A stretch of 64,000 bases of DNA, from contig NZ_JABBGM010000010.1 in assembly GCF_012927405.1 (NCBI RefSeq), positions 1-64,000 on the forward strand. Direction: 5' to 3'. The notes below the pieces were generated by a model. It was not told the DNA's origin, did not search any database, and saw nothing but the letters and a program-made list of their open reading frames with translations. The stretch is from Novosphingobium olei. GTDB lineage: Bacteria > Pseudomonadota > Alphaproteobacteria > Sphingomonadales > Sphingomonadaceae. The position numbers and the translations under genes are program-made. Positions 34,683 through 44,821 of this stretch are shown here, one piece after another (within the stretch, counting starts at the first letter, position 1; the number at the start of each line of letters is the position of its first letter).

Positions 34683-36080
34683 TTACAGTCCCAGCGCCGC
34701 GCGATCGGCAACCACCGCCGCCAGTTCGGCCCGCGCTGCCGCTTCGCGCAACCGCGCATCGAGCGTGCGCAGCGCGGCATCGGCGGCGCTTTCCTCGCGC
34801 AGGTTTACCAGCAGGAAATCGCTCGCGCCCAGATCGAAGCGGCGGCGTTCGGCTTCGGCCATGCGGCGGGCCAGCTCCGCTTCGTCGCCGGCAAGCCGCA
34901 CCAGCTGCGCGGCGCCGCGCACCTGCGTCTGCAGGTTGGCTATGTCCACGCCGATCTGGTCTTCCAGCAGCCGCTGGCGGTGCGACAGCGCGTCGCGTTC
35001 GGCCTCGACTTCGGCGATGCGCCCGCGCGCGGCGCGCTGTTCGAGCGGCATCGAGAACTTGAGCCCCACCAGCGCCTCGGCCGGACGGCGGGTGGAACTG
35101 CCCGCGCCGAAGTCCTTCGACGCTTCGGCCTTGATGTCGAGCCGGGGTCGCAGGTCGTTCTCGGCCAGCGCGGCGCGCGTTTCGATTTGGGCGATGCGCG
35201 CGACCAGCGCCTTCAGGTCGGGGCGTTCGGACAAGTGCAGGTCCACGTCGCCCAGCCGCGGGCGCACGCCATCGGGCATCGTGTCGGGCAGGCGGTCGGC
35301 GGTGGGCGCCACCCGCTGGCCCAGATCGTCGCGCAGGAACATCGACAACGCGTTGGCGTAAAGCTGCAGTTCCTGTTCGCTGCGCACCACCAGCGCCTGG
35401 CGCCGGACGATGTTCTGGCGGTTCTCCACCGCCAGAATCGAAGGCCGCGCCCCCAGCTGCACCTGCCGCTCGATCGAGGCCTGGCGATTGCGCGCAAGGT
35501 CGGCCAGCTCGCGATAGAGCTTGAGCCGGAGCCCCGCCCCGACCCACTGCTGGTAGGCATCGATCGCGCGGCGCTGCACGCCGATGGCCACCACCTCGCG
35601 CTCGAAGGCGGCAATCTCGATATCGCTTTGCGCCAGCGTCCGCTTGCCCCGGCGTTCGTCGATCAGCCGGTCGCGCAGCAGCGAAAACACCGCGCCCGCG
35701 CGCACTTCGCCAAGGCCCAGCGTCACCGACTTGCCGTCATAGACCGGGAAGTCCCCGGCCGACAGGCGGTAGCCGGCATAGACGTTGCCGCCGTTGTTCT
35801 GCAGCGGCCGGGTGGCGCGCACATCGGCATAGGTGCCGTCGTAGTAGCCCAGTACGCGGCTCTGCGCGTCGGCCTCGAACACCAGGTCGAAGGCCCCTTG
35901 CGCGCCGAGCAGCTTGGCATCGGCCTGCCGTTCGCGGGCGATCGCTTCAAGGATCTGCGGCTGATGCCGCGCCGAAGAGGCCAGCACTTCGCCCAGCGTC
36001 AGGGTCGGCGCGGCCAGCGCGGGGCCCGCCACCAGCAGGGCGAGCGCCATGAGAAGGCGACGGAACAGGGCGGCGATCAT
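34683..36080 (-). CDS. TolC-family outer-membrane efflux protein
   Basis: 465 aa with a signal peptide (MIAALFRRLLMALALLVAGP). Long helical repeats of the TolC type: TLGEVLASSARHQPQILEAI opens the first, and the family's RPDLKALVARIAQIETRAAL starts the second half. Extended coiled coil around 380-450. The ATG at 36080 overlaps the stop of the HlyD gene (36077) as ATGA, so translation is coupled. Outer channel of the tripartite export system encoded by this operon. Confidence 0.88.
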   Translation of the reverse strand: MIAALFRRLLMALALLVAGPALAAPTLTLGEVLASSARHQPQILEAIARERQADAKLLGAQGAFDLVFEADAQSRVLGYYDGTYADVRATRPLQNNGGNVYAGYRLSAGDFPVYDGKSVTLGLGEVRAGAVFSLLRDRLIDERRGKRTLAQSDIEIAAFEREVVAIGVQRRAIDAYQQWVGAGLRLKLYRELADLARNRQASIERQVQLGARPSILAVENRQNIVRRQALVVRSEQELQLYANALSMFLRDDLGQRVAPTADRLPDTMPDGVRPRLGDVDLHLSERPDLKALVARIAQIETRAALAENDLRPRLDIKAEASKDFGAGSSTRRPAEALVGLKFSMPLEQRAARGRIAEVEAERDALSHRQRLLEDQIGVDIANLQTQVRGAAQLVRLAGDEAELARRMAEAERRRFDLGASDFLLVNLREESAADAALRTLDARLREAAARAELAAVVADRAALGL

Positions 36081-37180
36081 TTCGCTTCCTCGTCTTCCTT
36101 GCCCGCATCGCTCTTCTTTTCCTTCACCTTGTCGGCCAGCCCCTTGCCCGCACCCTTGCGCGGTCCGGTGTCGACCGGGGTGGGGAATTCCAGCGGGAAG
36201 TCGTTCAGCTGGCGCCACAGTTCGTAGCCCACGCTGACCGTTTCCATCTGGATCCAGCCGCGCACCTTCGAGCCGAGGCGGACGTAGTTGTCGTCGGGCC
36301 AGCGCGGCTTGCCTGGGCTAGGCTCGACCAGCACGCGGAACAGGCCGGTGCCTTGCGCCGAAGGGTCGATCGCCCGCACGCGCCCGTCGAACATGCCTTG
36401 CGCCACCGAAGGCCAGCCGCTGAACTGGATGGCGGGCCAGCCTTCGAAGTGCAGCCGCACCGGCTGGCCTGCGCGCACCAGCGCCACGTCGCGGCCATCG
36501 ACCATCAGTTCGACCACGCGCGGCGAATCCTCGGGCGCCAGCGTCGCCAGCCAGTCGCCTGCGCTGACCAGCGTGGCACCGGCGGCGGTGTTGAGCGACT
36601 GGATCCGCCCATCGCGCGGCGCGCGGACCAACTGCGCGGAGGAGCGGTTGAGCGCGATGTCGGCCTTGGCCAGCTTGGCGCGCGCTTCGGCCAGCTTGGC
36701 GGCGTGTTCGGCCACCTTGATCTGCGCGGCTTCGTAATCGCGCCGCGCGGCAAGGCCATCGGCGAACAGCTGGCCGGTGCGGCCAACGTCGATCCGCGCG
36801 GTCGCCATCGCCTGCTCGCTCGCCGCGATCTGCGCCGCGACCTGCGCGCGTTCGGCGGCGAGGCGGGCGATGAGGTCGGGATCGTTGTCGGCGATGCGGG
36901 CGATGGGATCGCCCTTCTTCACCAGCTGCCCATCGACCACGTACCAGCGTTCGACCCGGCCAGGCACCAGCGCGGTGACCTGCTGGACGCGGTCCTGCGG
37001 ATCGAGCGCGACGACCTGGCCCCGCCCCGGCGCGGTCTGCACCCAGGGCACGAAGATCAGGGCCAGCAGCACGAGCGGCAGGGCAATGCCGATCATCCAG
37101 CCGATCGCGACGACCAGCCGCGGCGGACGGATCGCGGCGAGGGTGTGGAAGCGGTCGAAGTTGTCGGGACGGGTCGCCAT
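36077..37180 (-). CDS. HlyD-family membrane-fusion (periplasmic adaptor) protein
   Basis: 367 aa. An N-terminal membrane helix (about 22-48, VVAIGWMIGIALPLVLLALI), a lipoyl half-motif GRVERWYVVDGQLVKKGDPI, and an alpha-helical hairpin (about 105-180, AERAQVAAQIAASEQAMA). Then the second lipoyl half RIQSLNTAAGATLVSAGDWL and a beta-barrel. The C-terminus is unusually charged (KVKEKKSDAGKEDEEAK). It sits between the ABC and TolC genes, 3 bases from the ABC gene, so it connects an inner-membrane ABC protein to TolC. Confidence 0.88.
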   Translation of the reverse strand: MATRPDNFDRFHTLAAIRPPRLVVAIGWMIGIALPLVLLALIFVPWVQTAPGRGQVVALDPQDRVQQVTALVPGRVERWYVVDGQLVKKGDPIARIADNDPDLIARLAAERAQVAAQIAASEQAMATARIDVGRTGQLFADGLAARRDYEAAQIKVAEHAAKLAEARAKLAKADIALNRSSAQLVRAPRDGRIQSLNTAAGATLVSAGDWLATLAPEDSPRVVELMVDGRDVALVRAGQPVRLHFEGWPAIQFSGWPSVAQGMFDGRVRAIDPSAQGTGLFRVLVEPSPGKPRWPDDNYVRLGSKVRGWIQMETVSVGYELWRQLNDFPLEFPTPVDTGPRKGAGKGLADKVKEKKSDAGKEDEEAK

Positions 37181-37183
37181 CGC

Positions 37184-38887
37184 TCAGCCCTCCCGTCCGG
37201 TGTCGCGCGCAGGCGGCAGCACCCGGTCGAGGCTTTCGCCCCGCGCCTGCTCGGTTTCGCCCAGCCACAGCCAGGCATCGCGCGCCAGCCCTTCGGGCCG
37301 TGCGGTGAACTGCAGCACGGTGGTGCCATGCGCGCGCAGTTCGGCCAGCACGCGGTCGATGTGCTCTGGCGGCAGCAGGTCGTAAAGCGGCGAGAGCACC
37401 AGCACGCGCGGGCGCGCCAGGATCGCGCCGGCGAGTTTCAGCGCCATCGTTTCGCCCACCGAGAGCGGCCAGCCCGAGCTTGACAGCGGCGTGTCCAATC
37501 CCGCCGGCAGCGCGCCGACGCGGCGTTCGAGGCCGACCAGCGCCAGCGCTTCGAGGATGGCGGCGCTGCGCCCGGCGGCGGCGAGGCCGAGGTATTCGCG
37601 ACAGGTCATCTCGACGATGGTGGGGCGATCGAGCACGATCACGTCCGAGCGCAGGTGATACATGTCGAACGTGCCGAGATCGGCGCCGCCGACGGTGACG
37701 AAGCCGCGCTCGGGCGCCTGCAGCCGCTTGAGCAGGGTGACGATGCCGCGTTCGACCCCGGGCGCGGCGACCACGCCGACCTGTTCACCGCTGGCGATGC
37801 GGAAGTCGAAGCGATGCGCGCCGAGCTGCACCCCGTCGAGCCGGATGTCCCCGTTGCCAAGGCCCGGTGCGTCGGTTTCGGGCGGCACTTCCTGCGGCAC
37901 GTCCCAGAACAGCGACAGTTCCTCCAGCCCGGCGGCAAGGTCGTAGAACACCTCGAGGTAGGAGCCGAGCTGGGCGATGCCGTAGAACACGCCCGAAAGG
38001 ATCAGCTCGGCGGCGACGAGCTGGCCGATCGAGAGTTCACCCTGCAGGATCAGCCAGCCGCCCATTGCCAGCAGCCCCGCGCTGGCGGTGGCATAGAGCG
38101 CGAGCAGCGCGATGGTCTGGCCGAAGGTGAAGCGGAAATGGCGGCGGTGCGCAGCGACATAGGCGGCGGTGACGTCCTCCGACTTGTCGATCGCGAAGCG
38201 CATGTGGCGGCTGGACTTGTAGAAGCCGTTCGAACCGCCGACGCTTTCGAGCCAGTGCGCGGCAGCATGCTTGGCGTGGCTCTTGGCCACCGCGCTCGAC
38301 AGCGAGCCTGCCAGCCAGATCCGCCAGATCGCGACGACGAGCAGCACCAGCAGCGCGTTGAAGGCGAGGAAGAACGGGTGGTAGAAGCTGGTGACGACCA
38401 GCCCGACCAGGCTTTGCAGCACGATGGTGAAGCCGCCGATGACCAGGCTGGTCAGCGCCTTCTGCACGGTGCCGAGGTCGAAGAAGCGGTTGAACAGATC
38501 GCCGCGCCGGGCATCGACGAAGAACGGGTTCTGCGCATGGACCGCGCGCAAGGTGATTTCGGCGACCATGCGGGCGAAGAAGCGGCGTTCGAAGCGGGCC
38601 ATGAGCATCACGCGCAAGGCCATCAGCAGCCCGGCGATGCCCAGCAGCGCGAACAGAAGCAGCGAGAGCGTGAACAGCGGAGCGGGCAGCGCGGTGTTGG
38701 CGACCGAGTTGATCAGCAGCTGGACCGAGATTGGGGTTGCCAGCGACAGCAACGAGATCGCCGCGCCATACAGAAGGGCGAGGCGGATGAAACCGCGATC
38801 GGGCGCAAGCACGCGCGCGCTCCAACGAGCGTAGTCGCGCATCGTCGGCTGGTGATGCTGTCCGGAATCGGTTGCCGCTACGGCCAT
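37184..38887 (-). CDS. ABC exporter-type protein with a degenerate (pseudo-ATPase) nucleotide-binding domain
   Basis: 567 aa. Residues 30-310 are a six-helix ABC type I exporter membrane domain. Residues 345-530 align with the ATPase domain but every motif is lost: Walker A is VVAAPGVERGIVTLL (no GKS/T, around 373-386), the Q-loop is VIVLDRP, the signature is PLSVGET (475-480), Walker B is RVLVLSPLYD (S499-P500 instead of D-E), and the H-loop is VLQFTAR. The fold-determining residues around them are retained, so it appears to be a maintained inactive domain, not a frameshift. First gene of the HlyD-TolC operon. Confidence 0.85.
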   Translation of the reverse strand: MAVAATDSGQHHQPTMRDYARWSARVLAPDRGFIRLALLYGAAISLLSLATPISVQLLINSVANTALPAPLFTLSLLLFALLGIAGLLMALRVMLMARFERRFFARMVAEITLRAVHAQNPFFVDARRGDLFNRFFDLGTVQKALTSLVIGGFTIVLQSLVGLVVTSFYHPFFLAFNALLVLLVVAIWRIWLAGSLSSAVAKSHAKHAAAHWLESVGGSNGFYKSSRHMRFAIDKSEDVTAAYVAAHRRHFRFTFGQTIALLALYATASAGLLAMGGWLILQGELSIGQLVAAELILSGVFYGIAQLGSYLEVFYDLAAGLEELSLFWDVPQEVPPETDAPGLGNGDIRLDGVQLGAHRFDFRIASGEQVGVVAAPGVERGIVTLLKRLQAPERGFVTVGGADLGTFDMYHLRSDVIVLDRPTIVEMTCREYLGLAAAGRSAAILEALALVGLERRVGALPAGLDTPLSSSGWPLSVGETMALKLAGAILARPRVLVLSPLYDLLPPEHIDRVLAELRAHGTTVLQFTARPEGLARDAWLWLGETEQARGESLDRVLPPARDTGREG

Positions 38888-38964: not shown

Positions 38965-38990
38965 CTATTATTGCGATAGGTTTAACCTAT
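38965..38990. promoter_or_regulatory. OxyR-type tetranucleotide repeat upstream of the export operon
   Basis: CTAT (38965-38968), seven bases, ATAG (38976-38979), seven bases, CTAT (38987-38990). This fits three of the four units of the OxyR consensus ATAG-N7-CTAT-N7-ATAG-N7-CTAT with exact spacing. It is embedded in a near-perfect dyad CGATAGGTT-T-AACCTATCG (38974-38992). It lies 78 bases upstream of the ABC gene start and overlaps the stop codon of the OxyR-like LysR gene. Confidence 0.55.
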
Positions 38991-39898
38991 CGTTCGGCAA
39001 TGCTCCGCAATGTCTCGGCGAGGAGCAGCAGATCGGCCGACGGCCCCGCCCCACCCCGCCAGACGAGGCCGATGTCGCGATAGGGGCGCCCGCCGACGAA
39101 GGGGCGGACGATCACGTCGCCATCATCGCGGATTTCCTGCCGGCAGTAGAGTTCGGGCAGCAGGGCGAGGCCCATGCCCATGCCGGCCATCTGCCGCACC
39201 GCATCAAGGCTGGTGCCTTCGTAATCGCGCAACACCTGCGCCCCGCCGCGTTCGGCCAGCGCGGCGACCTGCGTGCTCATGCGGTAGGCCGGCTGCATGG
39301 TCAGCAGGCCGCGCCCGGCGAGGTGTTCGGGACGGATCGCGGCGACGCTGCGCAGGGGATCGTCGGCGGCCATCGCCAGAAACATAGGTTCACGAAACAG
39401 GCGTTCGACGTGGAATCGCGCATCGTCGACCGGAAGCTGGACCAGCAGCACGTCGTGCAGGCCATCGCCCAATTGTTCGGCCAGCACATCGGGCAGGCCT
39501 TCGCGCACGTAGACCTTCAGCCGGGGGTGGGTCTTGTGCAGCCGGGCGACCAGCTGGGGCAGGATATAGGGCCCGAGCGTGGGCGAAACGCCGAGGCGGA
39601 TCGTGCCGCCGAGTTCGCCATCGCGGTGGCGCAGGGCGAGCGCGGCGAACCCTTCCGCTTCGGCGAGGATGCGCCGGGCGAGCGCCACCGCTTCACGCCC
39701 CAGCGGCGTGAGGAAGGCCCGCCCCCCGCGTTCGACCACGCGGCCGCCGAGCTGGTCCTCCACTTGCGCGATGGCCTGGCTGAACGAGGGCTGCGACACG
39801 CCGACCTGCCCGGCGGCGCGGGTGAAGCTGCCGCAATCGGCCAGCGCGACGAGGTAGCGCAACTGGCGCAGCGTCGGCTGGGCGGCGGGATCGCTCAC
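38987..39898 (-). CDS. OxyR-like LysR-family regulator lacking the peroxide-sensing cysteines
   Basis: 303 aa. GTG start at 39898 overlapping the stop of the upstream LysR gene (GTGA). HTH residues 10-50 (LRQLRYLVALADCGSFTRAA, SQPSFSQAIAQVEDQL) and the effector domain follow OxyR closely: RLGVSPTLGPYILPQLVARL, LFREPMFLAMAADDPL and MGLALLPEL. In E. coli OxyR C199 sits in GHCLRDQ; the equivalent here is AYRMSTQ with R206, and C208 aligns with Ala. So it cannot use the known disulfide switch. It may respond to another ligand. Confidence 0.87.
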   Translation of the reverse strand: MSDPAAQPTLRQLRYLVALADCGSFTRAAGQVGVSQPSFSQAIAQVEDQLGGRVVERGGRAFLTPLGREAVALARRILAEAEGFAALALRHRDGELGGTIRLGVSPTLGPYILPQLVARLHKTHPRLKVYVREGLPDVLAEQLGDGLHDVLLVQLPVDDARFHVERLFREPMFLAMAADDPLRSVAAIRPEHLAGRGLLTMQPAYRMSTQVAALAERGGAQVLRDYEGTSLDAVRQMAGMGMGLALLPELYCRQEIRDDGDVIVRPFVGGRPYRDIGLVWRGGAGPSADLLLLAETLRSIAER

Positions 39899-40761
39899 GC
39901 CCCGCGCTCCAGCGCGGCGATGATGTGCTGGGCCAGGCGATGCGCGGTGTCCGACAGGCCCGGCGCTTCGATCAGCGCGATTTCGGTATCGTAGAGCGGC
40001 GGCAATCCGCTTTCCTCCCCCAGCGCGGTCAAGCCTTGCGGCACCATTTCGAACGGCAGCACGGTGATCCCCAGCCCCGCCTTCACCGCCGAGAGCGAAC
40101 CGGCGAGGCTGGTGGAGGTATAGGCGACGCGCCACGGCTTGCCCATGGCGTCGAGCGCTTCGCTCGCGCGTTTGCGATAGACGCAGGGTTCGGGCGAGAC
40201 GACGAGCGGGATGCGGGCAAGATCGGCGACCGCCTGCCGATCGCGGCCCACCCAGACGAGCGGTTCGCGCCACACCTTCACGCCGGGCTGGCGCTTCTGT
40301 TCGGGCTGGCGCTTGACGAGGGCGAGATCGAAGCCGCCGGCATGGAAGCGTTCGATGAGGTTGAGCGTCAGGTCGCAGGTGACTTCGAGTTCGACCAGCG
40401 GGTGCGCTTCGGCAAAGGCGGCGAGCACGGCGGGCAGGTGTGCGGTTGCGAAATCCTCCGGCACGCCGAGGCGGACCTGCCCCGCCACTTCGGGTTCGAA
40501 CATTTCGGCGACGGTGGCATCGTTCAGCCGCAGGATCTGGCGGGCGGGCCCGATGAGTCGTTCGCCTTCGGGCGTGATGGCCAGGAAGCGGGGGCTGCGA
40601 TCGAACAGGGTGCGGCCCAGCTGATCCTCCAGCCGTTTCAGCTGCAACGAGATGGCCGATTGCGTGCGGCCCAGTCGCTGCCCGGCGCGGGTGAGGCTGC
40701 CGGTATCGGCAATCGTGACAAAACAACGCAGTAGATCGATGTCGAGGTTGCGGAGCGCCAT
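39895..40761 (-). CDS. LysR-family transcriptional regulator
   Basis: 288 aa, start ATG 40761 (MALRNLDIDLLRCFV). N-terminal winged HTH (TGSLTRAGQRLGRTQSAISL), then LysR effector domain (LGVPEDFATAHLPAVLAAFA). Divergent from dabB, with a 104-base shared control region, and co-transcribed with the OxyR-like gene. LysR proteins regulate divergent genes, so dabBA is the likely target. Effector unknown. Confidence 0.9.
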   Translation of the reverse strand: MALRNLDIDLLRCFVTIADTGSLTRAGQRLGRTQSAISLQLKRLEDQLGRTLFDRSPRFLAITPEGERLIGPARQILRLNDATVAEMFEPEVAGQVRLGVPEDFATAHLPAVLAAFAEAHPLVELEVTCDLTLNLIERFHAGGFDLALVKRQPEQKRQPGVKVWREPLVWVGRDRQAVADLARIPLVVSPEPCVYRKRASEALDAMGKPWRVAYTSTSLAGSLSAVKAGLGITVLPFEMVPQGLTALGEESGLPPLYDTEIALIEAPGLSDTAHRLAQHIIAALERGA

Positions 40762-40865
40762 ACACAACTCATTATCATTTACGTTTGCAATTTTCAAGAT
40801 TTCACAAATTCGTTTCACTCATGCTGCAGCTGCTGCCAGTTCCCGCTTCCGCAAGGAGGTGAACG
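40762..40865. promoter_or_regulatory. Divergent control region of lysR and dabB
   Basis: 104-base AT-rich gap. ATCATTTACGTTTGCAATTT and CACAAATTCGTTTCA hold T-N11-A type LysR half sites, but no single palindrome stands out. AAGGAGG lies directly before the dabB ATG. Location alone supports LysR control of dabBA. Confidence 0.5.
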
Positions 40866-42257
40866 ATGGCGACGACATTCGATATGGTGCAGACCGGAGC
40901 GGCACAGGCAAAGCGCCCGTTGCGCGTGACGGCCCCGGTGCTGGCGCTTTCGGCCATGGCGCTGGGCCTTGGCGCGACGGCGATTGCCGGACTGCTGCGC
41001 GTGACCGCTGCGGGCGTTGCGCTGGGCGGGCTTGCCGCGCTGCTCACCGGACTCGTGCTCGTGTTCGCCCAGCGCCACCTGCGCGCCGACCCGCGCCGCC
41101 TGGCCCATGCGCGGCTGGCGACCGGGCTGGCCTTTGCGACCGTGCTGGTCGGCCTGGCCGACAACGTCGTGCTGCTGGCCGCGGGATGGATCGCCGCCGG
41201 CCGGCTGATGACCGGCCTTGTCCGCCATGCGGGCGACTGGGCCGAAGCGCGCGCCGCCGCCGCCCGTGCCGGCACCGCCTTCCTGATCGGCGACATCGCG
41301 CTGGTGGGGGCGCTGGTCACGCTGGCGATTACGGCCAAGACCGCCTCGATCGCCGCGATCGCGGCCGCCGTGCCCACGCTTTCTCCGCTGGCGCTGACGC
41401 TGGCCGCCGCGCTGCTGGTGATCGCGGCTGCCGCACGCTGCGCCACGCCGCCGTTCTCGTCCTGGCTGCTCTCCTCGATTGCCGCGCCGACGCCGGTGTC
41501 CGCGCTGATGCACGCAGGCTTCGTCAATGCCGGCGGCTTCCTGGTGATCCACTTCGCCCCGGTGCTGGAAGCGGTGCCGGCGGCGCGCTTTGCCCTGCTG
41601 GCCATCGGTGTGACGGGTGCGCTCTATGGCTCGGCGCTGATGCTGGTCCGCGCCGACGTGAAGGGTGCGCTGGCCGCATCGACGGTGGCGCAGATGGGCT
41701 TCATGCTGCTGACCTGCGCGCTGGGCGGCTATGCCGCGGCGTTGTGGCACATGGTGGCGCACGGCGCGTTCAAGGCCTGGCTGTTCCTGGGCGCATCGGG
41801 CGCGATCCGGCGCAGTGCCGCGGGCGCCGGTGACAAGGCGCTGCCCGCGCCGGTGCCTGCGCTGATCGCGCTGGCGGCGCTGGGCGCAGGCGCGCTGATC
41901 ATGGAAACCGCCATCGCGCAGACCACGCTGTTGCCGCTGGGCCTTGCCGCGACGGCGCTGCTGGTGGCGCTGGCCATGGCCGCGCGCGGGCTGCGCTTCG
42001 AAACCGCGCGGATCACGCTGCTGGCGCTGCCCGCGCTGCTGGTTGCGGTCAATGCCGCCGCGCTTGCGCTGATGGAAGCGGTGCAGGCGAACGCCGCGGT
42101 GCCGCTGCTGCCAGCCTGGGCGCAGCTTGCCCTGCTCTCGCTGTTCCTGGCCGGCTGGCTGGTGCAGCAGGATCTTGCCGCCGGACGCCGCCGCCTGCCC
42201 GCCGGGCTCCACGCCCGCCTGCTGCATGCCGGCGCGCTGCCCACCCCCGCCAATTGA
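40866..42257 (+). CDS. dabB: DabB: NADH-quinone oxidoreductase subunit 5-like, energising subunit of DIC uptake
   Basis: 463 aa, 12-13 membrane helices of the proton-pumping antiporter (MrpA/NuoL) type, with the TM motif FSSWLLSSIAAPTPVSALMHAG near 200-220 and the charged YGSALMLVRADVKGALAAST. A lone NuoL-like protein next to DabA is DabB, which couples cation flow to bicarbonate/CO2 uptake. Strong AAGGAGG site. 29 bases before dabA. Confidence 0.92.
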   Translation: MATTFDMVQTGAAQAKRPLRVTAPVLALSAMALGLGATAIAGLLRVTAAGVALGGLAALLTGLVLVFAQRHLRADPRRLAHARLATGLAFATVLVGLADNVVLLAAGWIAAGRLMTGLVRHAGDWAEARAAAARAGTAFLIGDIALVGALVTLAITAKTASIAAIAAAVPTLSPLALTLAAALLVIAAAARCATPPFSSWLLSSIAAPTPVSALMHAGFVNAGGFLVIHFAPVLEAVPAARFALLAIGVTGALYGSALMLVRADVKGALAASTVAQMGFMLLTCALGGYAAALWHMVAHGAFKAWLFLGASGAIRRSAAGAGDKALPAPVPALIALAALGAGALIMETAIAQTTLLPLGLAATALLVALAMAARGLRFETARITLLALPALLVAVNAAALALMEAVQANAAVPLLPAWAQLALLSLFLAGWLVQQDLAAGRRRLPAGLHARLLHAGALPTPAN

Positions 42258-42286
42258 CCCTGCCTCTTCTCGCAAAGGACTGATCG

Positions 42287-44821
42287 ATGGCTACGCTTGC
42301 CTTCAACCCGATGCTCGACACCGGCGCCCAGGCCGACCTTGCGGCCCATGTGGACGAGGCCGCCCGGGCCATCGCCCCGCTGTGGCCGCTGGAAAGCGCG
42401 ATCGCGGTGAACCCGCTGTCGGGCTTCGAACACATGCCCTTCGAAGCGGCGCTGCGCGAAGGGGCCGAGCTGTTCGGCGCGCGCACCACGCTGCCGCTGG
42501 CGCAGTGGCGCACGCTGCATGCCGAAGGGCGGATCGACGACATCGCGCTGCGCAAGGCGATCGTGGCGACGCTGGGCGGGCTGGACCCTGCCTTCGCCCT
42601 GTTCGGCCCGGACCTCAACGCCTTTGCCCTGCTGCGCGCACGGCTGGTCGACCTGCCGCTGGCCGCCACGCCCGCCCCGGCGCGCCGCCCGCTGACCCCG
42701 GCGATCGCCCTGCTCGCCCGCTGGATCGGCTGCTTCCTCGACCGCGCGGCGCCGCCGCTGGCGGGGCGTGAAGACGGCCTCTATCGCTGCCTGCTCGCCG
42801 CGCTGCGGGCAGACCCTGCACTGCGCGCGCTGGCGGTGCGCGAACGGCTGCGGGTGCTCGACCTTGCGCCCGAGACACCGCTCGCCACGCTGGGCCTGAT
42901 CCTCGACCGGCAGGCAATCGCGCCGGCCGCGGCGGCGGATCACGTGCGGCGCCTGTTCGCGCGGCTGCCGGGCTGGGCGGCGCACTTGCGCTGGCGGACG
43001 GCCCATGCCGAACCGCACCAGATCGGAGGCGCGCCGGCCGAGATGATCGACCTTGCCGCGCTGATCGCCCTGGTCGGCTTCGTCTGCGGCGAGGACCACA
43101 GCGCGCCGGCGGCTCCGGCGGCGGACCACGACGAGGCGGCGGTGGCGCGCGATCTGCTGGCGCACTGGAACCTTGCCGCCGATGCGCCCGCCGGCTGGGA
43201 CGAACCGGCGCGCCAGAACTTCGCCCGGATCGTCGGCATGGACGAGACCGCGCTGGGCCTCGTCTTCCAGCAGGCGGCCGAGCGCGGGGTCATCGACAGC
43301 CTGGGCCACGCGCTGGAGGCGCGCTCTGCCGCGTGTGCCGCGAACGCCGAAACGGCGCGGGCGGCGGCGCAGCTGGTGTTCTGCATCGACGTGCGCTCCG
43401 AACCGATGCGCCGCGCGATCGAGGCGGCGGGCAGCGAAGAGGGCGGCTTCGAAACCTATGGCTACGCCGGGTTCTTCGGCCTGCCCATCGCGCTGCAGCC
43501 GGTGCTGGGCCCCGCCCCGCGCAAGCAGCTGCCGGTGCTGCTTGCGCCCGCGCACCACGTGGCCGAAGCGCCGCTGCCGGGCCGCGCGAGCGAGGCCGAG
43601 GACATGGTGACGCGGCAGGCCTGCGCCCACCGCGCGCAAGGCATGCTCGATGCGACCAAGAGCGGCGCGACCGGGTTCGCCGCCGCCGAAGCGCTGGGCC
43701 CGCTGGCGGCGGTGGCGCTGCTGGCGCGGACGCTGGCGCCGCGCCTTGCCGAGCGGCTGGCGCGCGGGGTGCTGGGCCATGCGCACGAAGTGCTGGCGCC
43801 GCTGGCCTCGAACGACGACGAAAGCGTCATCCCGCTGGCCGACAAGGTCGGCTATGCGCGCGGCATGTTCAAGCTGACCGGGCTGCCGGCGGCAACCGCG
43901 CGGCTGGTGGTGCTGGTCGGCCATGGCGGTTCGACCACCAACAACGCCTTTGCCGCCAGCCTCGACTGCGGGGCCTGCGGCGGGCATCCCGGTGGTCCGA
44001 ACGCGCGGCTGATGGCGGCGATCCTGAACGATCCGGCGGTGCGGCGCGGCCTTGCCGACGATGGCCTCACCCTGCCCGAGGACACCGTGTTCCTGGCCGC
44101 GCAGCACGACACCACGCGCGACGAGATCACCCTGTTCGACCGCGATGCCGTGCCGCAGAGCCACCAGAGCGATCTTGCCGCGCTGGAAGGAACGCTGCGC
44201 GCGGCCGGGCGGGCGGCGCTGGATGCGCGCGCGGGCAAGCTGGCGCGGCCGGCAGACGACCTGCTGGCGGGTGCGGCGCACTGGGGCGAAGTGCGGCCCG
44301 AATGGGGCCTTTCGGGCAATGCCGCCTTCATCGTGGGGCCGCGCCGGCTGACCGCGCCGCTGGACCTTGATGGCGCGGCGTTCCTCCACAGCTACGACTG
44401 GCAGGCGGACAAGGACGGCAGCGCGCTGACCGCGATCCTGACCGCGCCGATGATCGTGGCGCAGTGGATCAACTGCCAGTACCTGTTTTCGACCATCGAC
44501 AACGCCGTCTATGGCGCGGGCGACAAGGTGACGCAGAACGTGATCGGCGGCTTCGGCGTGGTGCAAGGGAACGGCGGCGACTTGTGCACCGGCCTGCCGC
44601 GCCAGTCGCTGTTCCGCGACGATGGCACCCCGTTCCACGTGCCGCGCCGCCTGACCGTGTTCGTCGAGGCGCCCCTGCGCCGGGTGGAGGAGATCGTCTT
44701 CGCCCACGACAACCTCGTCCAGCTGGTCGAAAACGGCTGGATCAACCTGGTCGTGATCGATCCCTGGAAGCACCGCGCGCACCACTGGCAGCGCGAACGG
44801 TGGGTGCCGCGCGTCTGCTGA
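42287..44821 (+). CDS. dabA: DabA: carbonic-anhydrase-like subunit of the DAB dissolved-inorganic-carbon transporter (DUF2309)
   Basis: 844 aa. The beta-carbonic-anhydrase-like zinc site is visible: C366 and D368 in LVFCIDVRSE, H546 in LVGHGGSTTNN and C561 in SLDCGACGGHPGG, matching C351, D353, H524 and C539 of Halothiobacillus DabA. N-terminal IAPLWPLESAIAVNPLSGF is the family start. With DabB it takes up CO2 or bicarbonate vectorially. No RuBisCO or carboxysome genes in view, so likely used for anaplerosis or growth at low CO2. Confidence 0.95.
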   Translation: MATLAFNPMLDTGAQADLAAHVDEAARAIAPLWPLESAIAVNPLSGFEHMPFEAALREGAELFGARTTLPLAQWRTLHAEGRIDDIALRKAIVATLGGLDPAFALFGPDLNAFALLRARLVDLPLAATPAPARRPLTPAIALLARWIGCFLDRAAPPLAGREDGLYRCLLAALRADPALRALAVRERLRVLDLAPETPLATLGLILDRQAIAPAAAADHVRRLFARLPGWAAHLRWRTAHAEPHQIGGAPAEMIDLAALIALVGFVCGEDHSAPAAPAADHDEAAVARDLLAHWNLAADAPAGWDEPARQNFARIVGMDETALGLVFQQAAERGVIDSLGHALEARSAACAANAETARAAAQLVFCIDVRSEPMRRAIEAAGSEEGGFETYGYAGFFGLPIALQPVLGPAPRKQLPVLLAPAHHVAEAPLPGRASEAEDMVTRQACAHRAQGMLDATKSGATGFAAAEALGPLAAVALLARTLAPRLAERLARGVLGHAHEVLAPLASNDDESVIPLADKVGYARGMFKLTGLPAATARLVVLVGHGGSTTNNAFAASLDCGACGGHPGGPNARLMAAILNDPAVRRGLADDGLTLPEDTVFLAAQHDTTRDEITLFDRDAVPQSHQSDLAALEGTLRAAGRAALDARAGKLARPADDLLAGAAHWGEVRPEWGLSGNAAFIVGPRRLTAPLDLDGAAFLHSYDWQADKDGSALTAILTAPMIVAQWINCQYLFSTIDNAVYGAGDKVTQNVIGGFGVVQGNGGDLCTGLPRQSLFRDDGTPFHVPRRLTVFVEAPLRRVEEIVFAHDNLVQLVENGWINLVVIDPWKHRAHHWQRERWVPRVC

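What the first reader, a model, noticed from the sequence alone, without database searches (positions are those of the whole stretch)
37184..38887. ABC exporter whose ATPase domain has lost Walker A, Walker B, Q-loop, signature and H-loop
Seen: no GK(S/T), D-E replaced by S-P, signature PLSVGET, no His; yet the frame is intact and the surrounding fold pattern is recognisable, and it is in an intact HlyD-TolC operon. ABC exporters need ATP hydrolysis, so this subunit cannot be a conventional engine. It could be driven by another ATPase, act as a passive or proton-driven channel, or serve as a receptor.
Basis: partly seen in the sequence, partly recalled or inferred. Interest (0 to 1): 0.65.

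Follow-up and report, generated by a model that had tools for sequence, protein, structure and literature searches.

The report
ABC exporters with dead ATPase domains
A bacterial export pump of a kind normally driven by ATP has lost the key residues it would need to burn ATP, yet many bacteria keep it intact as part of a three-gene export machine, so it probably runs on another energy source.

Summary
The 567-aa protein at 37184-38887(-) has an ABC-exporter membrane domain and an ABC-fold NBD without the Walker A Lys, the Walker B Asp-Glu pair, the Q-loop Gln or the H-loop His; the signature survives as LSVGE. It is not decay: none of 96 close sequences (window included) has Walker A, Walker B Asp, Q-loop Gln or H-loop His, dN/dS is 0.05-0.23, and ABC-HlyD-TolC is contiguous in 80 of 80 named relatives. 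The family reaches distant Gammaproteobacteria and Bacteroidota; there 5 of 25 sequences keep a P-loop and one also keeps Walker B, but none of 121 has the full set. A TM6 glutamate (E294) is present in 121 of 121 and in 1 of 20 canonical exporters. I read it as a clade of pseudo-ATPase tripartite exporters, probably driven by an ion gradient, with the NBD kept as a structural clamp. Motif loss and its conservation are shown; the energy source is inferred. A partner ATPase in trans is not excluded. Unexpected: DabAB inorganic-carbon genes adjoin the trio in three lineages and co-occur with it across the order (uncorrected for relatedness).

The parts
37184..38887 (-). pseudo-ATPase ABC exporter, 567 aa (TMD + degenerate NBD)
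37883..38842 (-). transmembrane domain (residues about 16-335), ABC_membrane
37253..37855 (-). degenerate NBD (residues about 345-545); model pLDDT block means mostly 75-93, dipping to 39-68 at residues 401-420
37742..37768 (-). former Walker A: AAPGVERGI (residues 374-382), no GK[ST]
37628..37630 (-). former Q-loop Gln, now D420
37451..37465 (-). partly kept signature LSVGE (residues 475-479)
37388..37393 (-). former Walker B D-E, now S499-P500
37301..37303 (-). former H-loop His, now A529
38006..38008 (-). TM6 Glu E294, in 121 of 121 family rows and 1 of 20 canonical rows
38378..38380 (-). H170 in the TM3-TM4 loop (FYHP), 120 of 121 family rows, 0 of 20 canonical rows
36077..37180 (-). HlyD-type periplasmic adaptor, 367 aa
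34683..36218 (-). TolC-family outer membrane channel (likely true start ATG 36080, inferred)
38987..39994 (-). OxyR-like LysR regulator upstream; a homologue (>=38% identity) sits just upstream of the trio in 44 of 79 named loci with enough upstream sequence
39895..40818 (-). second LysR regulator (LysR1), 40% identical to the one beside the trio in L172
40866..42257 (+). DabB candidate (Proton_antipo_M)
42287..44821 (+). DabA (PF10070)

Best explanation
The protein belongs to a family of ABC-type exporters, separated from canonical ones in the tree, whose NBDs have become pseudo-ATPases; in the loci examined it is encoded with its own kind of HlyD adaptor and nearly always TolC. I infer a homodimer that alternates access without hydrolysing ATP in its own NBDs and passes a substrate to HlyD-TolC. 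The most likely energy source is an ion gradient (probably protons) acting on titratable or polar residues of the membrane domain, E294 in TM6 above all. The NBD pair is kept as a mechanical clamp or regulatory element attached through the coupling segments. Shown: motif loss, its conservation, purifying selection, trio linkage, family-typical TM residues. Inferred: homodimer, absence of ATPase activity, ion coupling, nature of the substrate.
For: Close set: 0 of 96 have Walker A, Walker B Asp, Q-loop Gln, LSGG[QE] or H-loop His; 1 of 96 has Glu at the Walker B Glu column. dN/dS 0.050-0.148 for the TMD and 0.050-0.229 for the NBD over nine pairs. The tree splits 44 family rows from 13 canonical rows at 100/100. 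HlyD and TolC follow in 80 of 80 named loci, HlyD in 25 of 25 other loci. In the phylum sample the ABC protein at E<=1e-60 and the HlyD at E<=1e-15 occur in the same 11 of 398 genomes. E294 in 121 of 121 vs 1 of 20; Q158, W212 and Y315 at 0.99-1.00 over 120 rows. Segments 117-137 and 212-228 (coupling helices by my assignment) have mean top-residue frequency 0.87 and 0.94 in the close set, the NBD 0.70. Precedent for an ABC-exporter fold run by protons: SbmA/SLiPT (PMC13316013, passages). The NBD model matches solved ABC NBDs at rmsd 2.5-4.1 A over 209-221 residues.
Against: No measurement of transport, ATP binding or energy source. No detectable similarity to SbmA in a profile comparison (one SbmA sequence only, so weak). 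SLiPTs lack the coupling helices that this family keeps. E294 is also present in members that keep a P-loop (L104, L131, L146, L159, L160) and in one canonical row, so it need not replace ATP. In the predicted helix 287-329 E294 lies near the periplasmic end (inferred), whereas the SbmA ladder lies on the cytoplasmic side of its gate. In the 22 distant rows the coupling segments are no better kept than the rest of the TMD (0.47, 0.53). The TMD part of the model is only moderately confident (pTM 0.44).
Confidence: 0.42

Rival explanations
1. An ATPase in trans drives it: the protein pairs with a canonical ABC half-exporter, or borrows an NBD, encoded elsewhere.
For: Coupling segments are conserved in the close set. 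Heterodimeric exporters with one degenerate site exist (PMC7756269, passages). In 24 of 24 Xanthomonas loci an ABC ORF with intact Walker A and signature lies upstream; in L038, the one read in detail, it ends just before the LysR gene. The genome has 34 ABC_tran matches.
Against: No ABC_tran match falls inside the 64-kb window itself. Outside Xanthomonas, 53 of 56 named loci show no other Walker-A ORF matching the exporter-type NBD profile within about 6 kb or to the contig end, and 23 of 25 other loci likewise, some on short contigs. In the heterodimers described the degenerate site still holds ATP, whereas here Walker A is gone. No co-occurrence test over all ABC genes was made.
Confidence: 0.22
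2. A passive or gated conduit: the dimer only facilitates downhill efflux into HlyD-TolC.
For: No own catalytic residues; the tripartite operon is intact.
Against: Strong conservation of polar residues within predicted TM helices 1, 3, 5 and 6 suggests more than a pore (inference).
Confidence: 0.15
3. A sensor or regulator: the NBD binds a ligand other than ATP and gates export or signals.
For: Other NBD residues are near-invariant in the close set (G472, P474, D503, L412-R413, T523, R530-P531).
Against: The NBD is the less conserved domain (0.68 vs 0.78 mean top-residue frequency over 100 sequences), and for some distant members Pfam lists no ABC_tran match at E<=1 (L158, L102, L173).
Confidence: 0.12
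4. A decaying duplicate or an annotation artefact.
For: One plasmid copy (Sphingopyxis sp. 113P3, L165) is cut short beside an IS3 transposase.
Against: dN/dS far below 1 in nine pairs, trio kept in 80 of 80, the same losses in the 96 close sequences.
Confidence: 0.02

Closest known systems
Type 1 secretion / HlyB-HlyD-TolC-type ABC tripartite exporters
   Same: Gene order and fold: ABC exporter, HlyD adaptor, TolC channel. Best NCBIfam match is type_I_sec_HlyB (111.8 bits, cut-off 725.55).
   Different: NBD lacks catalytic residues; all listed NCBIfam scores lie far below their cut-offs; the 367-aa adaptor passes the cut-off of RND_mfp (100.2 vs 94.9) and not that of type_I_hlyD; no substrate gene was looked for.
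SbmA/BacA (SLiPT) proton-driven peptide transporters
   Same: ABC-exporter membrane fold working without its own ATP hydrolysis (inferred here), with a conserved membrane Glu.
   Different: SLiPTs lack NBD and coupling helices (PMC13316013, passages); this family keeps both, has no PF05992 match listed and no detectable similarity to E. coli SbmA. SbmA imports; this trio should export.
Heterodimeric ABC exporters with one degenerate site (TmrAB, TM287/288)
   Same: Fold and the idea of a non-hydrolysing site.
   Different: There one site stays canonical and the partner supplies hydrolysis; here no adjacent partner was found outside Xanthomonas in most loci, and Walker A itself is lost.

Membership tests
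ABC transporter ATP-binding domain (PF00005) | match above curated cut-off | tested here: not met
   15.8 bits against 25
ABC transporter ATP-binding domain (PF00005) | Walker A, Walker B, Q-loop, H-loop residues | tested here: not met
   absent in the window protein and in 96 of 96 close sequences, save one with the Walker B Glu alone
ABC transporter ATP-binding domain (PF00005) | ABC NBD fold | tested here: met
   model residues 338-564 match ComA, TAP1, HlyB and LipB NBDs, rmsd 2.5-4.1
ABC exporter membrane domain (PF00664) | match above curated cut-off | tested here: met
   37.8 bits against 28
Type 1 secretion system | ABC protein + HlyD adaptor + TolC encoded together | tested here: met
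   window and 80 of 80 named loci
Type 1 secretion system | ATP-hydrolysing inner-membrane component | tested here: not met
   catalytic residues absent; activity itself cannot be measured here
Type 1 secretion system | secreted protein substrate | not tested
   no search for a substrate was made
SbmA/BacA (SLiPT) | PF05992 match or detectable similarity | tested here: not met
   not listed at E<=10; hhalign to SbmA probability 0.35%
SbmA/BacA (SLiPT) | no NBD, no coupling helices | tested here: not met
   NBD fold present; coupling segments conserved in the close set
SbmA/BacA (SLiPT) | glutamate ladder and proton coupling | tested here: inconclusive
   one invariant TM6 Glu; proton coupling cannot be tested here
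Heterodimeric exporter with one degenerate site | partner subunit with a canonical NBD | tested here: inconclusive
   none in the window nor near the trio in 53 of 56 non-Xanthomonas named loci; one upstream in 24 of 24 Xanthomonas loci; a distant partner is not excluded

The most novel reading that the evidence does not exclude
A whole clade of ABC exporters in Proteobacteria and Bacteroidota has swapped ATP for an ion gradient while keeping the NBD as a mechanical part. Living members look like steps: Walker A and B kept but Q-loop Gln and H-loop His lost (L146), P-loop kept (L104, three Bacteroidota sequences), catalytic residues lost (window clade), NBD unrecognised by Pfam (L173). This would be a second, independent route from primary to secondary transport besides SLiPTs, and the first ABC-derived one in a tripartite pump that I know of.
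Probability: 0.33. Interest if true: 0.82.

Novelty: new variant of a known kind. Interest (0 to 1): 0.62.

Why it matters
ABC exporters are defined by ATP hydrolysis. A broad, conserved family that keeps the architecture and the tripartite operon but drops the catalytic residues makes two questions testable: what the NBD does apart from burning ATP, and how a primary pump turns into a secondary one. Some of these proteins are annotated 'ABC transporter ATP-binding protein', which is misleading if the reading is right.

Tried and rejected
Rejected: pseudogene or frameshift. Not borne out as membership: SLiPT. Proof of ion coupling was out of reach. A survey of Bacteroidota genomes was not possible: the genome search takes only genome handles as centre, so Bacteroidota rest on a few plasmid records. 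PF05992 was run partly as a co-occurrence control for DabA but is too rare (3 of 181) to serve, so that association has no control. Literature searches for this family or for ABC exporters without any working NBD listed nothing on it: (open-licence PubMed Central; listings seen). Passages only were read of PMC13316013, PMC7756269 and PMC8277102 (nothing to the point). SbmA was not among the 50 rows printed by either fold search; that proves nothing. The second structure job was not used, and a dimer could not be modelled.

Rows and counts. Of 124 relatives the best 80 were kept; all 80 were used. The alignment (used) left out L134-L145, L150 and L151 (HlyD loci or duplicates). further dropped duplicate fetches (L124-L129, L001), the interrupted copy L165 and the canonical fragment L095, and counted identical sequences of the close set once (98 to 96); its 25 distant rows still hold near-duplicate pairs (L010/L011, L153/L154, L156/L157). 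One search's 99 close rows include L011 and two exact duplicates; one search's 98 include two exact duplicates. Some close rows are the same strain reached by two routes (for example L002/L022). Close and distant sets were my own division. The 20 canonical rows are the best-scoring canonical hits of the window protein plus one from its genome, not a random sample. The label MsbA-like for the Xanthomonas neighbour and YddA-like for a protein of the window's genome are recalled names, not tested. One search hid most Xanthomonas loci by a filter in its print; only four of them and L038 were seen there.

Full report
What is there. The minus-strand ORF 37184-38887 encodes 567 aa. Residues about 16-335 are an ABC-exporter membrane domain (PF00664, 37.8 bits, cut-off 28); residues about 345-545 align with ABC_tran below its cut-off (15.8 vs 25). 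HlyD (36077-37180) and TolC (34683-36218) follow on the same strand at operon spacing. The genome holds one copy; the next best match in it is 25% identical. Solved structures nearest by sequence are ordinary ABC exporters (ABCB1, HlyB).

Motifs. In the alignment with canonical exporters Walker A reads AAPGVERGI, the Q-loop Gln is D420, Walker B D-E is S499-P500, and H-loop His is A529. AlphaFold2 (alignment A2, 61 sequences) gives an NBD with block means mostly 75-93 and a dip to 39-68 at residues 401-420, within a moderate overall model (mean pLDDT 74, pTM 0.44). VIA-align places residues 338-564 on the NBDs of ComA, TAP1, HlyB, LipB and others at rmsd 2.5-4.1 over 209-221 residues. The fold is an ABC NBD; the catalytic residues are gone.

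Conserved, not decaying. The search for related loci found 124 relatives and kept the best 80, all used: Xanthomonas 24, Sphingomonas 21, Novosphingobium 17, Sphingobium 5, Caulobacter 4, and others (tally). With plasmid and unnamed-genome copies the close set is 96 distinct sequences including the window. None has Walker A, Walker B Asp, Q-loop Gln, LSGG[QE] or H-loop His; one has Glu at the Walker B Glu column. Nine pairwise comparisons give dN/dS 0.050-0.148 (TMD) and 0.050-0.229 (NBD). In the phylum sample 11 of 398 genomes have the protein at E<=1e-60, and the same 11 have this HlyD at E<=1e-15, so in that sample the HlyD was not seen without the protein. In the order, 28 of 196 genomes have it. 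Fourteen sphingomonad plasmid records carry a copy over at least 80% of its length and one a truncated copy.

Deeper family. Searches from a distant member (G418) and from Persicobacter found further trios. Of 25 distant rows, 5 keep a GK[STN] P-loop, 4 keep Walker B Asp, 4 the Walker B Glu, and one (L146) both with Walker A; none has Q-loop Gln; 2 have a His at the H-loop column. L146 has LSSSQ in place of the signature. Bacteroidota members (Persicobacter, Aureibacter, Riemerella plasmids) have the same ABC-HlyD-TolC order. The maximum-likelihood tree splits 44 family rows from 13 canonical rows at 100/100; a 34-row clade holding the window has no P-loop in any row (100/99). P-loops are also missing in some rows outside that clade (L147, L155-L158), so loss may have happened more than once; the tool warns that long branches meet and the root is a midpoint for drawing only, so deep order is unsure. 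The Persicobacter and L146 proteins carry an N-terminal extension of roughly 130-150 residues; that it is a C39-like domain as in HlyB is recalled and untested. HlyD is adjacent in 25 of 25 other loci and TolC in 23 of 25, weakly scored in L124 and L166 (contig L174 ends too early; in L173 no TolC was seen).

How it may work. The TMD is more conserved than the NBD (0.78 vs 0.68). Positions at 0.95 or more over 120 rows include Q56, R134, Q158, Y169, H170, K206, W212, Q257, E294 and Y315. E294, in predicted TM6, is Glu in 121 of 121 rows and in 1 of 20 canonical rows, where Asn is usual (17 of 20). In the close set the TM3-TM4 loop (SFYHPFFL) is conserved at 0.99 and the coupling segments, as I assign them, at 0.87 and 0.94; in the 22 distant rows these fall to 0.70, 0.47 and 0.53, the last two no better than the TMD at large. 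SbmA shows that the ABC-exporter membrane fold can run on protons with a glutamate ladder; its authors propose that SLiPTs arose from full-length ABC transporters by loss of NBDs and coupling helices, with YddA keeping part of the ladder (PMC13316013, passages read). By analogy only, I propose ion-driven export here with the NBD kept as a clamp. The analogy has limits: no detectable sequence similarity, NBD and coupling helices are kept, SbmA imports, and E294 is also present in members with a P-loop.

Rivals. A partner ATPase in trans is the strongest. In 24 of 24 Xanthomonas loci an ABC exporter ORF with intact Walker A and signature sits upstream (L038 read in detail). But no ABC_tran match lies in the window, in 53 of 56 other named loci no second Walker-A ORF matching an exporter-type NBD profile was found within about 6 kb or to the contig end, and of 25 other loci two had one (L167, L177). 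That profile may miss distant ABC types. A passive conduit and a receptor role remain possible.

Unexpected association. DabA and DabB genes adjoin the trio in the window, in L015 (same genus), in plasmid pHAL16 of Sphingobium sp. KCTC 72723 (dabB-dabA-ABC-HlyD-TolC in one direction, L133; dabB by similarity only), and in a distant gammaproteobacterium (L172: dabBA divergent from a LysR gene 40% identical to the window's LysR1 and directly followed by the trio). No other locus in hand showed them. Across the order DabA occurs in 14 of 196 genomes, the trio in 28 of 196, and both in 10, taking the two calls to have drawn the same 196 genomes: Fisher p 5e-7; by genus 8 shared of 12 and 13 among 63, hypergeometric p 1.2e-4. 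The window's genome, where the link was noticed, is one of the 10. No correction for relatedness and no matched control was made. A shared physiology (pH, CO2, proton budget) is a lead, not a result.

Literature. Six searches of open-licence PubMed Central listed no description of this family; the degenerate exporters described in the passages read keep one working site (PMC7756269). This does not show that none exists in subscription journals.

Verdict. That its own NBD does not hydrolyse ATP is very likely (about 0.9); the ion-gradient mechanism is a reasoned bet (about 0.4).

Noticed in passing
window 38987-44821; L133 94-8153; L172 3832-12594: DabAB inorganic-carbon genes beside the ABC-HlyD-TolC trio in three separate lineages, with genome-level co-occurrence in the order (10 of 14 DabA genomes have the trio, 18 of 182 others), uncorrected for relatedness.
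   Followed up: partly
L038 3069-4886 and 23 further Xanthomonas loci: An ABC exporter ORF with intact Walker A and signature lies upstream of the trio in 24 of 24 Xanthomonas loci; read in detail only in L038, where it precedes the LysR gene.
   Followed up: partly
L165 6001-8709 (Sphingopyxis sp. 113P3 plasmid): A plasmid copy of the transporter is cut short beside an IS3 transposase; neither HlyD nor TolC is annotated after it within the stretch shown.
   Followed up: no
G000:C23:418769-420220: The window's genome has a 588-aa frame with an SbmA_BacA match and an ABC_tran match above cut-off; SbmA_BacA matches in 3 of 181 genomes of the order.
   Followed up: no
L172 3832-6239: dabA reads as two ORFs in this genome (break or assembly error).
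   Followed up: no
L173 8869-10446: A family member in which Pfam recognises neither the TMD nor the NBD, still followed by HlyD.
   Followed up: no
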